DNA of 64,000 nt from a bacterium 336/3 (GTDB lineage Bacteria; Bacteroidota; Bacteroidia; Cytophagales; Thermonemataceae): contig LJIE01000001.1 of assembly GCA_001281695.1 (NCBI GenBank), forward strand, positions 3,433,521 through 3,497,520. Direction: 5' to 3'. How positions within the stretch are numbered: position 1 is the first letter of the stretch; each line of letters opens with the position of its first letter. Made by a program: the position numbers and the translations under genes. Below are positions 19,991 through 26,535 of the stretch, one piece after another. The notes beneath the pieces were generated by a model that saw only the letters and a program-made list of their open reading frames with translations, was not told where the DNA came from and did not search any database.

Positions 19991-20025
19991 AAGCCTTATT
20001 GTTATTTTTAGCAATAAGGCTTTTG
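19991..20025 (+). terminator. Terminator after the DedA gene
   Basis: AAGCCTTATTG, a 10-base loop, CAATAAGGCTT and TTTG: a perfect 11-bp stem with a short T run. Confidence 0.85.
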
Positions 20026-20127
20026 TCCTCTTAAAGTCCACCTCTTTTTTTTATCTGTCTATTTCGTGTCTACTCTATTTTTTAGGATTAATAGACCTGC
20101 ACCCATACTTTTGTATCGTCTTGCAAG
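20023..20127 (+). promoter_or_regulatory. Shared promoter module, copy A (subtilase gene)
   Basis: In order: TTGTCC at 20023; three direct-repeat boxes TCCACC (20037), TCTATT (20058) and TCTACT (20069), spaced 21 and 11 bp, so all face one side of the helix; a weak TTTA at 20081-20084; the -7 box TACTTTTG (20106-20113); and the perfect palindrome CTTGCAAG (20120-20127) at the expected transcription start. The same elements with the same spacings precede the amidase gene at 21912-22015. This is best read as a binding site for an activator acting at a Bacteroidota promoter. The regulator is unknown. Confidence 0.7.
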
Positions 20128-20179
20128 GCTTGTACTTTTATCAGTAAAAAAATTAATTAATCCTAAAAAATTTAATCGT

Positions 20180-21805
20180 ATGTTCTCACGTAAAATTTAT
20201 TTCCTAACATTAGCAGGCATGATGAGCTTGGTAGCTTGTAAAAAGACAGATCTCGTACCTAATACCTCTCAAAATCAATCTATAACTCTCCAAGCATTAT
20301 CTGTTAATCAATTAAATGAGGTTATTAAAAAACAATTAACAAGTACACATCAATCTTTTGATTGGAATAAGGCTTCTGATGATGAACTCTGGAGTGGTAT
20401 TAAAAACTCTCAGGATGGTAATTTATTAGTAGGTTATAAACCTAGCAATATTTCTATTACTCAAGCAAATGATTTAGTTGTAAAAGGAGATATTCAATCG
20501 TCTGCTTGGAAAGATGCTCATAATCAGATTATTCAATTGATTTTAGAAACAGAAAGACAACTAAATCCTGAAATTAAAATTGAAGATATTATTAGTTTTG
20601 ATAATGAAGCTTATGCTGTATTTAGTGCAAAGGTTAATAATCCTGCTGTTATTAGAAAAATCAGAATGAGTCCTTTTTACAAATATGCAGAATCTACTTA
20701 CGAGCCTAAAGCTGAAGCTGATATAAATTCAAGAAATCCAAGTGGGCAAGAAGTAGGCTGTGCTGGTGGATATCAAGCAAATCCTGATATAAGATTGGGT
20801 ATGCACTACGATAAAATAAATACTACATCTCAATCTTTAATGTCTTGGAATTATAAATATCATAAAATTAAAGATGCTTGGGCTACTGCTTTTACAGGAA
20901 AAGGCATTGGTGTGATGGTATTTGATACAGGTTTAAATCCTAATCAGAGTTTATTAGTAAGCAAATTCAATAGTGGTTTGATTACAGGTAGAACAAGAGG
21001 AAATGTATCTTTCTTAAAAAATTCTGCTGGTACATTGTTACCATCTGCTGATGAGTGTGGACATGGCACTTCTCTTTCTGGAGTGGTAGGTGCTCCAAGA
21101 ATTGATAATCTTGCTTCTACAGCAGGAGTAGCTTATGGATGTAATCTTTTGGTTGCTCGTGTAACGTATGATGTATACATTGATTCTGCTGAAGAAATTA
21201 ATGCTGTTGCAGCTGGTTTTGACGCTTTTGCCCAAAATAATAGTATGAGAATTGCAAGTATGAGTTTAGGAAGAGTTGGCAACAATACACTCATTGCCAA
21301 TGCTATACAAAGAGCATACAATACAGGTAGAAAACTAATTTTTGTTGCTTCTGGAACAGCTCCTTTTTTAGTCTCTGGTTCTGGTAGTGCTGTAGGTCAG
21401 GATGAGTTGGTATTTCCTGCTAATATGGGTACTCCCACCATTGCAGTATCTGGTATTGCTACAGATTATTTACGTTGTGAGCAGTGTGTGGTTGGAAATC
21501 AAACTGATTTTGTTGTAGTAATGGAGAAAGTACTTGCTGGTACAGCAGAGGTGAAGGTGCATCCACTTGGTACTGCTAATAGTAGTAGCACACAACCAAA
21601 CAATATTGGTGGTTCTTCTGTAGCAACTGCAACAATGGCAGGTATGGCAGCTATTGTATGGTCTAAATTCCCAAATGAGTCTGCTATTTCTATATTCTTC
21701 AGGCTTCAAAAAGCTGCTGATAAATATAGAAATGGTATCTCAAAACCTAATCCTTATGGTTGGGGAATAGTAGATGTAAGCAAAGCTCTTACTCAACCTC
21801 TATAA
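20180..21805 (+). CDS. Subtilase (S8) family serine protease, lipoprotein
   Basis: 541 aa from ATG 20180; a longer in-frame extension would run into the promoter and is rejected. MFSRKIYFLTLAGMMSLVAC is a lipoprotein signal with Cys20. A propeptide-like region (about 25-200) precedes the catalytic domain with Asp249 (GVMVFDTG), His295 (ECGHGTS) and Ser480 (GGSSVATA). The oxyanion-hole Asn of subtilisins (AAGN) appears to be Thr here (VASGT), which is unusual. There is no T9SS tail. It should be an outer-membrane or surface-anchored protease. It shares promoter and signal-peptide start with the next gene, so the two are probably co-regulated. Confidence 0.88.
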   Translation: MFSRKIYFLTLAGMMSLVACKKTDLVPNTSQNQSITLQALSVNQLNEVIKKQLTSTHQSFDWNKASDDELWSGIKNSQDGNLLVGYKPSNISITQANDLVVKGDIQSSAWKDAHNQIIQLILETERQLNPEIKIEDIISFDNEAYAVFSAKVNNPAVIRKIRMSPFYKYAESTYEPKAEADINSRNPSGQEVGCAGGYQANPDIRLGMHYDKINTTSQSLMSWNYKYHKIKDAWATAFTGKGIGVMVFDTGLNPNQSLLVSKFNSGLITGRTRGNVSFLKNSAGTLLPSADECGHGTSLSGVVGAPRIDNLASTAGVAYGCNLLVARVTYDVYIDSAEEINAVAAGFDAFAQNNSMRIASMSLGRVGNNTLIANAIQRAYNTGRKLIFVASGTAPFLVSGSGSAVGQDELVFPANMGTPTIAVSGIATDYLRCEQCVVGNQTDFVVVMEKVLAGTAEVKVHPLGTANSSSTQPNNIGGSSVATATMAGMAAIVWSKFPNESAISIFFRLQKAADKYRNGISKPNPYGWGIVDVSKALTQPL

Positions 21806-21826
21806 TATTCTTTCATTTATTCCATA

Positions 21827-21866
21827 AAAACCTTTAAGAATAAACTCTATATTCTTAAAGGTTTTT
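21827..21866 (+). terminator. Terminator after the subtilase gene
   Basis: AAAACCTTTAAGAATA, a 7-base loop, TATTCTTAAAGGTTTTT. A perfect 16-bp stem with T run, directly upstream of promoter module copy B. Confidence 0.88.
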
Positions 21867-21911
21867 GTACTTATTATACAATAAATATAACTTTTTTTAT
21901 ATTTATAAGTA

Positions 21912-22015
21912 TTGTCCGCCTAAAGTCTACCTATCAAAAAGGCCTGTCTACTTTGTATCTACCTATATTTTTTGGTTTGGAAGTATGTACACATACATTT
22001 GTGATGTCTTGCAAG
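21912..22015 (+). promoter_or_regulatory. Shared promoter module, copy B (amidase gene)
   Basis: In order: TTGTCC at 21912; direct-repeat boxes TCTACC (21926), TCTACT (21947) and TCTACC (21958), spaced 21 and 11 bp; TTTG at 21971-21974; a 19-base spacer; TACATTTG (21994-22001); and the palindrome CTTGCAAG (22008-22015), 14 bases from the start of the -7 box. Every spacing equals that of copy A within one base. The promoter itself fits the Bacteroidota consensus well. Confidence 0.72.
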
Positions 22016-22050: not shown

Positions 22051-24360
22051 ATGTTTCGTAAAATTTATTTCCTCGCTTTATTTACCTTAACACTTCTTCA
22101 GGCAAAAGCACAAGATGAAAGAAGTTTCCAAAAATTGATGGATTTGTCTATCCAAAAGATTGAAAAAAATGGTGACTTATATTTGAAAGGTGATTTCACA
22201 GAAATCTTAATTGGTAAATCTCTAAGTGCTCTCAAAGCTAGTAGCACAAAAGGACACGATCTTGAAGATTATGAGATATATTATAAGACTCTCAATAGTG
22301 CTCATCCTAGTATCAAAACTATTCAAAAACATCTAAAACAGGCTTCTCAAGAGTTCAATGTGCCTTATGAAATTTTAAATTCTATTGCAAAAAGTTACAA
22401 TAATTATTGTATGGCTGGTCCTTCTATGTATAACTCATGGGGAGTTATGGGGCTTGTGGATGGAACTCTCAGCAACACACTCTCCGATGGAGCTAAACTT
22501 ATTGGAACTACTAAAGATAAAGTAAAATTCGACGTACGCCAAAATATTAGAGCAACTGCAGCTTTACTTTCTCATTATTATGGTCAAAATAAAACCAGAA
22601 ATCATGAAGACATTTTGAGTTGGCTTGATGCTCTAAAAATGATTACAGGTTTAAGAGAACCAGAACTTAGAGAAATGCAAGCTATCGCTTATTTAAAAGT
22701 TTTAAATAATGGTAGCCAAGGTGAAATTACTCTTTGGAAAGAAAAAACTGATTTTAATGGTAGAAAAGATAATGCAATTGCTAATTTGATTAACAACTAT
22801 GAGGAAAGAATAGCAAAAGTAGGTTTGTTTCCTCAAAAAACTAACCAAGAAGGTGTTACAACAGAAGGAGCTACAACAGGAACACCTGATTATTCTGGAG
22901 CAATTGCCTCATTTACAGATTGTAACCAAGGTTCAAGAGGGGGTACAGATATAGATACTTGGGTAAATCATTATTTAGCTACGGGTACAGTACCTGGTGC
23001 TATTAGCTGGTTTAGACAGTGTCGTCCATCAGCCACTACTTCTTCTGCACATTTTATTGTAGATACTGATGGAAAAATTTATCAATGTGTAAAGGTATCT
23101 GCAAATGCTTATCATGCAGGAGCGAGTGGAACAACCAACAATTCTCGTTCTATTGGTACAGAACATGCTGTGTATTCTTCTAATCCATCCGCTTGGAATA
23201 ACCAAACCCTTCTAAAAGCTTCTACAGATATGGCAAGATTTTTTTGTAATAAATATGCTATCTCTAAAACAAGGTCATTACCAGGTATCAGAGGACACAA
23301 AGAAATGCCTGGAACAAGTACAGATTGTCCTAATATTCTTCCTTGGACTACTTGGATGGACATGTTGAACAATGGTAGTGGAACAACAAACAACACTCCT
23401 ACCACTGTAAATCCAGCCAATAACGCTACTGGAACTGCAAGACCTGTTACTTTCACTTGGACTACTCCTGTCAATGCCACTCAATTCAGATTACAAGTTT
23501 CTACTGCTAACTCGGGTTGGAACGAGACTGATGGTTTTACCTCTGCTACAACAACTTCTTCTACTATTGTGGTTAATGCTAGTCTTTCTAACACTTTGAG
23601 TTTCTCTTGGATTGATGGAGTGGTTGGTTCTTTTGAAGGTCCTAGACCCAACACAACTTACTATTATACTCTCAGAAGCTTTGACCAAACTACTGGAACA
23701 TCTAAATATACTGCTGTGAAGAAATTTACCACTGACCAAGGCGTTTTGGCTATTTCTCCTGCCCCAAATGCAAATGCTGCTACTCCTGTTAAACTTTCTT
23801 GGAACAGTACTATTTCTGGAGGTTCTTACAGATTACAAATCTCTAAAACTAACTCTGGTTGGACTGCTGCCAATGGTTTTACTACTGAAGCCAATCCAAC
23901 TGCCAATGTTCCTGTCAATATCAGTGGGGGTGGGTTACTCAACTATACTTGGCAATCTGGTTCTGCTGGCTCTAATGCTGCTCCTGTGGTTGGTACTTCT
24001 TATTTCTGGACTGTCAGAGTTTTCTCTTCTGCTACTGGAACTTCTGATTATTCTCCTGTTAGAAAATTCACTGTAACTGCTACCGCTGCAAGAATTATTC
24101 AAGATTCTCAGTCTGATTCTAAAGACTTAATCGTTTATCCTAACCCTGCTCAAAATGATTTGCAGGTTCAAATAGTGGGAGATAATTTAGGCAAATCTAA
24201 TATCCAAATTATTGACTTTCAAGGAAATATTTTAAAATCTGCTGATACAACCTCAAACACCACCTCTCTCAATGTCCAAAACATCAAAGATGGTATCTAT
24301 ATCTTGAGAGTTGTAAACAACAAAGGGGTTAAAACGACCAATATCATTATTAAAAAATAA
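22051..24360 (+). CDS. Secreted N-acetylmuramoyl-L-alanine amidase (PGRP type) with T9SS tail
   Basis: 769 aa from ATG 22051. Signal peptide MFRKIYFLALFTLTLLQAKA. Residues about 90-225 resemble a lysozyme/transglycosylase-like helical domain (FNVPYEILNSIAKSYNN, WGVMGLVDG, DVRQNIRATAALLSHYYG), but the catalytic Glu expected in the ES motif is absent. Residues about 280-440 are a PGRP/amidase_2 domain with likely zinc ligands His307, His416 (GIRGHKEMPG) and Cys426, plus SAHFIVDTDGKIYQ. Two similar β-sandwich repeats of about 105 aa follow (each with FRLQVS/YRLQIS and NSGW), then a T9SS tail starting LIVYPNPAQNDLQV. It should cut stem peptides from peptidoglycan outside the cell. Confidence 0.9.
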   Translation: MFRKIYFLALFTLTLLQAKAQDERSFQKLMDLSIQKIEKNGDLYLKGDFTEILIGKSLSALKASSTKGHDLEDYEIYYKTLNSAHPSIKTIQKHLKQASQEFNVPYEILNSIAKSYNNYCMAGPSMYNSWGVMGLVDGTLSNTLSDGAKLIGTTKDKVKFDVRQNIRATAALLSHYYGQNKTRNHEDILSWLDALKMITGLREPELREMQAIAYLKVLNNGSQGEITLWKEKTDFNGRKDNAIANLINNYEERIAKVGLFPQKTNQEGVTTEGATTGTPDYSGAIASFTDCNQGSRGGTDIDTWVNHYLATGTVPGAISWFRQCRPSATTSSAHFIVDTDGKIYQCVKVSANAYHAGASGTTNNSRSIGTEHAVYSSNPSAWNNQTLLKASTDMARFFCNKYAISKTRSLPGIRGHKEMPGTSTDCPNILPWTTWMDMLNNGSGTTNNTPTTVNPANNATGTARPVTFTWTTPVNATQFRLQVSTANSGWNETDGFTSATTTSSTIVVNASLSNTLSFSWIDGVVGSFEGPRPNTTYYYTLRSFDQTTGTSKYTAVKKFTTDQGVLAISPAPNANAATPVKLSWNSTISGGSYRLQISKTNSGWTAANGFTTEANPTANVPVNISGGGLLNYTWQSGSAGSNAAPVVGTSYFWTVRVFSSATGTSDYSPVRKFTVTATAARIIQDSQSDSKDLIVYPNPAQNDLQVQIVGDNLGKSNIQIIDFQGNILKSADTTSNTTSLNVQNIKDGIYILRVVNNKGVKTTNIIIKK

Positions 24361-24690: not shown

Positions 24691-26535
24691 TTAGGTTTCT
24701 TCAATTTTCATCAAAAAACCTACTAAATTTTCATCCTGTTCCAAATTAAGCTTCTTACGCAAACGATAACGAGCTTTTTTTACACTATCCTCAGATATAC
24801 TTAAAAAAGAGGCTATTTCTTTGGATGAAAAATTTAATCTTAACAAAGCTGAGAGCTTTAAATCGTAGGGTGTTATATCTGGGTATTGTTGTTGGAGATT
24901 ATTGAAAAAGGTTTTATGAACTTGTTCAAAGGCTACTCTAAAATTCTCCCATTGTTTATCACTTTGATCATTACTTTGGATATTTTGTTTTAATCTTTGT
25001 AATGGCTGAATAACTGATTTATCTTCTGATTTACTAATTAAGTCCTCAACTTGTCCTTTCAATTCATTTAAAAGTTCATTTTTTTGTATCATATTGAGTG
25101 TAAAGCTTGTAAGTTCTTTGTCTTTACCTTCTAATTGCAGTCTGGTATTGCTTAGTTCTAATTGGGTTTGCATTTGTTCTTCCTTGAGCATAGCCTGCTC
25201 TAATTCCATCAAGACTTTGTCTTTTTTAGCTTTTAACTGTTTTTGCTTAATGAGTAAATAACTTATTAAAACTGTACTAAGTAAAGCAACTATGAGTAAT
25301 ACTGTAAAAAGGAATCCTATTTTATTTTGTTTTTTTAGGTCTTCTATTTCATATTTCTGTTTTAAAACTTGTTCTTCTTTTTTATAGTTTTCATATTGAT
25401 TTTGAACTTGTAATATTTGTTTATGCTTTTCAGCGTTATATAGTGTATCTTCTAACTCCTTAGCCTTTTTAAAATAATCTAAAGCTTCTTGAGGTTGTTT
25501 TTTTGCTTCATATATATCAGCTAGCACCTTATATGCTTCTTTAATATTTTGTAAGTTATTGAGCTTTAGTGCTATTTCTAACCCTTCAGAAGCTGTTGTT
25601 TGGGCATCTCTCAAGTTTCCTTTTATAGTGTATGCATTCGCTATTCCAAGCATAGAATTGGCTATTCCTACAGAGTCTGATAATGTCTCACTAATTTTTT
25701 TACTTTCTATATAATAGTTAAGTGATGAGTCAGCTTGGTTTTGAATCTGGTAAATTTCTCCTATATCACCTAATAAATCTGCTCGAAGACGTTCATAATG
25801 ATTTTTATTCGCTAGTTCTAAACTTTTTCGAAGATATTCCATAGCCTTAGCATAGTTCTTCATTTTTCTATAGGTTCCTCCCAAACCATTATAGTTGTAG
25901 CTTAACCCTAATTCATAGTTGATTTCTTTACATTTATTACTTGATTTTTCAAAGAAGCTAATAGCTTTATCATAGTCATCTTGCTCAAAATAAATTACTC
26001 CAATAGCTTGTGTTATATTACAATACTGAACATTACTTTCTTTAGTTTTTACTTGAATTGTTTCTAAAACTTTTAAAGCCTCTAAATAATAATCTAATCC
26101 TTTGGGTTGATTACCACTTCTTCTATTTACTACCCCTAAATCATATAAAATGGGGACAGTTTCCATAGTATATTTTCCCTTTGCAAGTAGTAATGCTTTA
26201 TTAAGATATTCTTTTGCTTCATCATATTTGCCTTGAGCTATCAAAAAAGTACCTTTGTTGTGTGTAGCCCAAACCAAACCTCTCTGATAATTAATTTTTG
26301 TAGAAAGTTCGAATGCTTGATCATTATATTCTACGGCTTGTTTTTCACCTGAGTGAAAATAAACTTGACATAGACGAATCAGAGCTTGTACTTTCAAAGT
26401 ATCAACAATATCTTTTTTCAAAACACCTTTAAGACTATCCAATTTGGCTTGCTGCTTTGGAGTCAATTTTTGAGCTTGTAAAGAGAAAATTAATACATTA
26501 AAAAAAATAGATAATTGTAAAATTTTGTAGTTCAT
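24691..26535 (-). CDS. TPR protein with membrane helix, coiled coil and LuxR-type HTH
   Basis: 614 aa. A signal peptide (MNYKILQLSIFFNVLIFSLQAQ) and about seven tetratricopeptide repeats (residues about 30-375, for example AISFFEKSSNKCKEINYELG and ALDYFKKAKELEDTLYN) lie outside the cytoplasm. One membrane helix (about 405-427, FTVLLIVALLSTVLISYLLI) leads to a long coiled coil (about 430-500). The C-terminus is a LuxR/GerE-like helix-turn-helix (LRLNFSSKEIASFLSISEDSVKKARYRLRKKL). It therefore looks like a one-component membrane-bound transcription regulator that senses through TPRs, a Bacteroidota-specific design. Targets are unknown; the convergent secreted amidase gene is nearby. Confidence 0.85.
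   Translation of the reverse strand: MNYKILQLSIFFNVLIFSLQAQKLTPKQQAKLDSLKGVLKKDIVDTLKVQALIRLCQVYFHSGEKQAVEYNDQAFELSTKINYQRGLVWATHNKGTFLIAQGKYDEAKEYLNKALLLAKGKYTMETVPILYDLGVVNRRSGNQPKGLDYYLEALKVLETIQVKTKESNVQYCNITQAIGVIYFEQDDYDKAISFFEKSSNKCKEINYELGLSYNYNGLGGTYRKMKNYAKAMEYLRKSLELANKNHYERLRADLLGDIGEIYQIQNQADSSLNYYIESKKISETLSDSVGIANSMLGIANAYTIKGNLRDAQTTASEGLEIALKLNNLQNIKEAYKVLADIYEAKKQPQEALDYFKKAKELEDTLYNAEKHKQILQVQNQYENYKKEEQVLKQKYEIEDLKKQNKIGFLFTVLLIVALLSTVLISYLLIKQKQLKAKKDKVLMELEQAMLKEEQMQTQLELSNTRLQLEGKDKELTSFTLNMIQKNELLNELKGQVEDLISKSEDKSVIQPLQRLKQNIQSNDQSDKQWENFRVAFEQVHKTFFNNLQQQYPDITPYDLKLSALLRLNFSSKEIASFLSISEDSVKKARYRLRKKLNLEQDENLVGFLMKIEET

What the first reader, a model, noticed from the sequence alone, without database searches (positions are those of the whole stretch)
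20023..22015. Duplicated promoter module with three phased direct repeats before two secreted lytic enzymes
Two regions 1.9 kb apart carry the same elements in the same order and spacing: TTGTCC; three TCYAYY boxes at +14, then 21 and 11 bp apart (20037/20058/20069 and 21926/21947/21958); the TAC(T/A)TTTG -7 box 36-37 bp after the third box; and a CTTGCAAG palindrome exactly 14 bp later. The intervening sequence has diverged, so the boxes look selected. Spacings of 21 and 11 bp (two turns and one) put every box on one DNA face, as expected for an activator array. The downstream genes encode a subtilase and a PGRP amidase with otherwise unrelated mature proteins. A regulon for lysing or digesting other cells is a reasonable hypothesis.
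Basis: partly seen in the sequence, partly recalled or inferred. Interest (0 to 1): 0.68.

Follow-up and report, generated by a model that had tools for sequence, protein, structure and literature searches.

The report
Operator arrays for membrane-anchored effector regulators
Two neighbouring genes for secreted lytic enzymes share a rigid four-box promoter array that recurs across the Bacteroidota next to one family of membrane-anchored regulators, and the boxes change when the regulator's DNA-reading residue changes, so this is very likely a widespread, undescribed switch for secreted effector proteins.

Summary
TTGTCC is itself a box: each array is four GTCYAYY boxes at 0/11/32/43 bp, i.e. 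two pairs of 11-bp direct repeats, with a TAnnTTTG -7 element 48-49 bp after the third box. Scanning the whole genome gives exactly three full arrays (both window copies and one before a DUF3370 lipoprotein) and none at 1-3 mismatches. A profile adds two weaker arrays (subtilase paralogue; esterase) with the same -7 spacing. CTTGCAAG is shared only by the two window copies.
The same architecture occurs in distant Bacteroidota. In 13 of 14 strong flavobacterial hits it starts 18-186 bp after the stop codon of a TPR-transmembrane-GerE (LuxR-type HTH) regulator and precedes a secreted lipoprotein, five of them CDC-like pore-forming proteins. The third-box-to--7 distance is 49 bp almost without exception. 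Paralogous regulators with another recognition-helix residue carry another box: Y/GTCYACC, Q/GTACCCC, N/GTCACCC. The window holds such a regulator (24691-26535, minus) beside the amidase gene.
Best explanation: the array is the operator of this membrane-tethered regulator family, activating secreted effector genes from a sigma-A promoter. Activation, signal and a predatory role are inferred.

The parts
20023..20074 (+). Array C1: four boxes GTCCTCT 20025, GTCCACC 20036, GTCTATT 20057, GTCTACT 20068 (spacing 11-21-11)
20106..20113 (+). -7 element TACTTTTG, 49 bp after the third box
   Evidence: the same spacing in relatives
20120..20127 (+). CTTGCAAG palindrome (only in C1 and C2)
20180..21805 (+). 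Subtilase-family (Peptidase_S8) lipoprotein with likely start ATG 20180 and lipobox LVAC
   Evidence: PF00082 E=1.2e-18
21912..21963 (+). Array C2: boxes GTCCGCC 21914, GTCTACC 21925, GTCTACT 21946, ATCTACC 21957
21994..22001 (+). -7 element TACATTTG, 48 bp after the third box; TTTG of the -33 region at 21971
22008..22015 (+). CTTGCAAG palindrome
22054..24360 (+). Secreted N-acetylmuramoyl-L-alanine amidase (Amidase_2) with T9SS C-terminal sorting domain, likely start ATG 22054
   Evidence: PF01510 E=1.4e-20, PF18962 E=1.6e-12
24691..26535 (-). Proposed cognate regulator: N-terminal signal sequence, TPRs, one transmembrane helix (residues 406-424), GerE/LuxR-type HTH with recognition helix VKKARYRLRKK
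   Evidence: (best of four in the genome)

Best explanation
The array is the operator of a family of membrane-tethered one-component regulators (outer TPR sensor, one transmembrane helix, cytoplasmic coiled coil and GerE/LuxR-type HTH). Two HTH domains bind side by side, head to tail, on each pair of 11-bp-spaced GTNNNCC boxes; a second pair lies three helical turns upstream on the same DNA face. Bound about 49 bp ahead of the TAnnTTTG -7 element, next to the -33 region, the regulator recruits the housekeeping Bacteroidota sigma factor and activates one or a few genes for surface lipoproteins or secreted enzymes. In this genome the regulator encoded at 24691-26535 most likely drives the subtilase and amidase beside it, and by the same box type the DUF3370 lipoprotein, a second subtilase and an esterase locus elsewhere. 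Shown by sequence: array, spacing, linkage to the regulator family, co-variation of box and recognition helix. Inferred: direct binding, activation rather than repression, the signal, and which of the four regulators serves C1/C2.
For: Exactly three full arrays in the genome, none at 1-3 mismatches. Two further arrays found with a model of the boxes only turned out to have TACTTTTG/TACTTTTA 48/49 bp after the third box. An 84,980-species scan found one more array, in Dokdonia, about 55 bp after the stop of a TPR-GerE gene, with TACTTTTG at 49 bp. In 397 flavobacterial genomes, 13 of 14 hits with E<1e-3 start 18-186 bp after a TPR-GerE stop codon. In the window's order, 15 of 19 loci examined have such a regulator within 5 kb, usually directly upstream. 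The genome has only four such regulators, and the one beside the amidase gene is the closest to array-linked ones with itself left out of the profile (142 bits vs 119, 97, 83). A pair of boxes plus a -7 element at 48-50 bp lies 3' of 32 of 93 regulators, against 1 on the reverse strand and 1.3 in shuffles. Recognition-helix residue and box co-vary: A at box position 5 in both boxes in 15 of 16 Y regulators and 0 of 13 Q/N regulators. N occurs in two separate clades with GTCACCC-type boxes.
Against: No binding or expression data. Y-type arrays in relatives were found through their boxes, and related sequences are not independent, so the Fisher value is descriptive; one Q regulator is also counted twice. 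One N regulator (L137) has GTAACCC/GTAAACT boxes. Three of the genome's four regulators carry Y, so the residue alone does not pick the window gene, and no array lies directly 3' of it. A model built without this genome's own arrays ranks C1 as the best site in the window (14 bits, E=0.004 in 114 kb) but C2 only marginally (E=0.37), and its genome-wide first look returned neither. The same-genus genomes have no array.
Confidence: 0.8

Rival explanations
1. The arrays are bound by another regulator type that uses 11-bp direct repeats (an OmpR/PhoB-like response regulator or a two-HTH AraC-type protein); the TPR-GerE genes are neighbours for other reasons.
For: 11-bp direct repeats are typical of Pho boxes, and AraC-family proteins place two HTHs about one turn apart (own knowledge).
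Against: No such gene was seen to recur next to the arrays; TPR-GerE genes do, in two orders of Bacteroidota, and the box changes with their recognition-helix residue.
Confidence: 0.1
2. C1 and C2 are a duplication of one promoter plus signal-peptide segment; the similarity is common descent without selection on the boxes.
For: The two genes share CGTAAAATTTATTTCCT at their starts and CTTGCAAG after the -7 box, and blastn aligns the regions at 67%.
Against: The third copy and distant genomes keep boxes and spacing but not the flanks; box identity is 23/27 against 12/25 outside. Duplication may explain why two adjacent genes have it, not why it is kept.
Confidence: 0.05
3. The same protein family binds, but as a repressor, or the true cognate of C1-C3 is one of the other three regulators in the genome.
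For: Two of the other three regulators also have Y in the recognition helix; a sixth array (3647668) is probably served by the regulator at 3642948, as in relatives.
Against: All boxes lie upstream of the -33 region at a fixed 48-49 bp from -7, the usual place of an activator. The window regulator is nearest and most similar to array-linked ones.
Confidence: 0.2

Closest known systems
NarL/FixJ/LuxR (GerE) HTH regulators
   Same: C-terminal GerE-type HTH: Pfam PF00196 above cut-off in the array-linked L073, marginal in the window gene. The profile matches the EL222 and EsrB HTH domains among solved structures. The co-varying residue falls in the recognition helix.
   Different: No receiver or ligand domain; a TPR region and a transmembrane helix instead; sites are head-to-tail 11-bp repeats with fixed promoter spacing rather than the inverted heptamers of NarL (last point own knowledge).
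ToxR/CadC-type membrane-bound one-component activators
   Same: Sensor outside, one membrane helix, DNA-binding domain inside, direct control of nearby genes.
   Different: ToxR/CadC carry the DNA-binding domain at the N terminus and it is an OmpR-type winged helix (own knowledge); here it is C-terminal and GerE-type.
Pho-box type operators (PhoB/OmpR)
   Same: 11-bp direct repeats on one DNA face just upstream of the core promoter.
   Different: Unrelated sequence; 11-21-11 spacing instead of a run of 11; linked to TPR-GerE, not response-regulator, genes.
CDC-like (CDCL) pore-forming proteins of Bacteroidota
   Same: Five array-controlled lipoproteins in flavobacteria match Thiol_cytolysin PF01289; CDCLs kill related bacteria (PMC11169675).
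   Different: That paper's text mentions no LuxR or TPR regulator. The window's array-controlled genes are enzymes, not CDCLs.

Membership tests
GerE/LuxR-type HTH regulators | GerE HTH domain at the C terminus | tested here: met
   PF00196 in array-linked L073 (24.2 bits, cut-off 23.5); window gene 21.4 bits, just under cut-off; profile matches EL222 and EsrB at E<0.01
Membrane-tethered one-component regulator (this group) | TPRs, a single transmembrane helix and a C-terminal HTH in one chain | tested here: met
   (hydropathy only for the helix)
Two-component response regulator (OmpR/PhoB or NarL type) | Receiver domain in the chain | tested here: not met
   No receiver domain in the Pfam scans of the window and array-linked regulators
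Bacteroidota sigma-A promoter | TAnnTTTG -7 box with a -33 TTTG-type element about 19-23 bp upstream | tested here: met
   C2: TTTG, 19 bp, TACATTTG; C1 has TACTTTTG with a weaker -33; C3 has GATCTTTG
Conserved operator of TPR-GerE regulators | Paired 11-bp direct repeats with the third box 48-50 bp before -7 | tested here: met
Conserved operator of TPR-GerE regulators | Direct binding by the adjacent regulator | not testable with these tools
   Only co-variation and linkage available
Predation/lysis regulon | Co-induction by prey and need for killing | not testable with these tools
   No expression data; the gene content is only compatible

The most novel reading that the evidence does not exclude
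Bacteroidota carry a large, undescribed class of membrane-tethered regulators, each wired to a private secreted effector by an orthogonal operator. A readable protein-DNA code (Y, Q, N, perhaps S in the recognition helix against GTCYACC, GTACCCC, GTCACCC, GTCCCCC) lets duplicated regulator-operator-effector cassettes, including pore-forming proteins and lytic enzymes, be switched independently in one cell.
Probability: 0.5. Interest if true: 0.85.

Novelty: new variant of a known kind. Interest (0 to 1): 0.74.

Why it matters
Activators and operators are poorly known in Bacteroidota. A fixed 49-bp architecture plus a recognition-helix code would let one read, from genome sequence alone, which regulator controls which secreted protease, pore former or lipoprotein across much of a phylum. 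It would also give orthogonal, tunable promoters for these bacteria, and it makes the control of interbacterial effectors such as CDC-like proteins directly testable.

Tried and rejected
CTTGCAAG as part of the module: not in the third copy nor in distant arrays, dropped. Known structured RNA: no Rfam match above gathering in 15 loci. A 19-aa query for regulators found nothing and was a wasted search. The model without own arrays also gave hits inside genes (G000:C3:91899, C1:1119590), judged false; it recovers C1 but hardly C2. A pattern search centred on the Dokdonia locus was not accepted. Literature searches for TPR-LuxR regulators of Bacteroidota, or for such direct repeats, returned nothing on point; only open-licence papers are held, so this is weak evidence of novelty. 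S with GTCCCCC rests on few cases (L085, L171, L175) and is left as a lead.

Full report
1. Observation. Both regions exist as described. Read as a series, TTGTCC is the first box: GTC(C/T) starts at offsets 2, 13, 34 and 45 from TTGTCC, so the spacing is 11-21-11, two pairs of 11-bp direct repeats three turns apart. The -7 element TAnnTTTG is 49 bp (C1) or 48 bp (C2) after the third box. Box positions agree at 23/27 between C1 and C2, other array positions at 12/25. The arrays lie partly or wholly inside the longest mechanical ORFs (GTG 20066, TTG 21865), but the signal-peptide starts ATG 20180 and ATG 22054 leave them intergenic. The genes encode a subtilase-family lipoprotein and an Amidase_2 enzyme with a type IX secretion tail.

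2. Not chance. A degenerate pattern of the four boxes matches the 4.7-Mb genome three times, with no match at 1-3 mismatches and none for the reversed pattern. The pattern was widened to admit the third copy, so its exact match is by construction; the absence of near-matches is not. The third copy (G000:C1:2085429) lies upstream of a lipoprotein with a DUF3370 domain. At up to 2 mismatches no other of 395 Bacteroidota genomes has it, nor do 38 relatives. A box-only profile of six arrays found two more in this genome (E about 8e-4), both of which then proved to have the -7 element at 48/49 bp. They precede a second subtilase, and a small secreted protein plus an esterase.

3. Distant relatives reveal the partner. 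A scan of 84,980 species gave one outside hit, in Dokdonia pacifica: intergenic, TACTTTTG at 49 bp, about 55 bp after the stop codon of a gene with TPRs and a LuxR-type HTH. Two further pattern hits in flavobacteria also follow such genes. The profile then found 14 arrays at E<1e-3 in 397 flavobacterial genomes; 13 start 18-186 bp after the stop codon of a TPR-GerE gene, on the same strand, mostly just before a lipoprotein gene. In the window's order, 15 of 19 loci examined have such a regulator within 5 kb, nine with it ending within about 240 bp of the array and two with the array upstream of the regulator itself, as if autoregulated. Position of the regulator was never a search criterion.

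4. The window has one too. 24691-26535 (minus), next to the amidase gene, encodes a 614-aa protein with an N-terminal signal sequence, TPRs, a transmembrane helix at 406-424 and the HTH. It is one of only four in the genome. Against a profile built without it, it scores 142 bits; the others 119, 97 and 83. A sixth array (3647668, minus; two boxes) precedes a gene whose homologues in two other genomes sit beside close homologues of the genome's regulator at 3642948, so that one is probably served separately.

5. Rigid geometry. In almost every array the third box to TAnnTTTG distance is exactly 49 bp. A box pair plus -7 at 48-50 bp lies 3' of 32 of 93 regulators collected; the reverse strand gives 1 and shuffles 1.3 (maximum 4). 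Part of that set was chosen for its arrays, but the pairs after Q- and N-type regulators were not.

6. A recognition code. Tandem paralogous units in one genome have the same geometry with different boxes. In the recognition helix KKAR-x-RLRKK, x=Y goes with GTCYACC, x=Q with GTACCCC (or GTATACC/GTCYCCC in a subgroup with [IM]PG before the helix, seen in two orders), x=N with GTCACCC. Regulators with KTARY or KVARY have GT[T/A][C/T]ACC boxes. A at box position 5 in both boxes: 15 of 16 Y, 0 of 13 Q/N. On a tree N occurs in two distant clades, both with GTCACCC-type boxes, and a Q regulator with GTACCCC nests beside an N regulator with GTCACCC. This is the strongest evidence that the adjacent protein reads the boxes. 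Caveats: Y arrays were ascertained by box, rows are related, one Q entry is duplicated, and L137 departs from the rule.

7. Mechanism. Most likely an outside signal read by the TPR region is passed through the membrane; HTH domains occupy the box pairs and contact RNA polymerase at the -33/-7 promoter, turning on a lipoprotein or secreted enzyme. Activation is inferred from box position. The signal is unknown. The effector side fits attack or digestion: subtilases, amidase and esterase here, Thiol_cytolysin-type lipoproteins in five relatives. CDC-like proteins of Bacteroidota kill related bacteria (PMC11169675), but no test links this regulon to predation.

8. Limits. A model without own arrays ranks C1 first in the window (E=0.004) but C2 only marginally (E=0.37), and its genome-wide first look returned neither. 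Same-genus genomes lack the array. Novelty rests on open-licence literature only.

Noticed in passing
L073, L074, L075, L076, L077, L078, L079, L080, L083, L086, L087, between the -7 element and the start codon: The flavobacterial array promoters share a conserved 5' leader (GTTTTGTGGTCTTGCTCGG...GGGCTGCAGACC...CCGGGCAGGTCACACAAAAC...CCACAAAAC) predicted to fold into a long hairpin; 6 of 23 pairs show two-sided changes, above shuffled and slid controls. No Rfam match. Possibly a new structured leader RNA.
   Followed up: partly
L073, L075, L078, L080, L081: Tandem regulator-lipoprotein units with different operator specificities in one genome, like duplicated effector cassettes.
   Followed up: partly
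G000:C1:3647668-3647742 (-), L212:4369-4443: Sixth, two-box array before a secreted protein (MKSNFKLLLLL...INLGKAKDK); the same gene family with array and a similar regulator recurs in L217 and L224.
   Followed up: partly
L074, L075, L076, L078, L081 downstream genes: CDC-like (Thiol_cytolysin PF01289) lipoproteins under the same promoter architecture in five flavobacterial genera.
   Followed up: yes
window 20180 and 22054: The N-termini of the subtilase and the amidase share CGTAAAATTTATTTCCT (RKIYFL), although the mature proteins are unrelated: a promoter plus signal-peptide duplication is likely.
   Followed up: no
L085 and other G520 loci: Genome G520 has 25 HTH matches of this regulator family, several in clusters, with S, N, H and L at the reading position: a good place to extend the code.
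   Followed up: no
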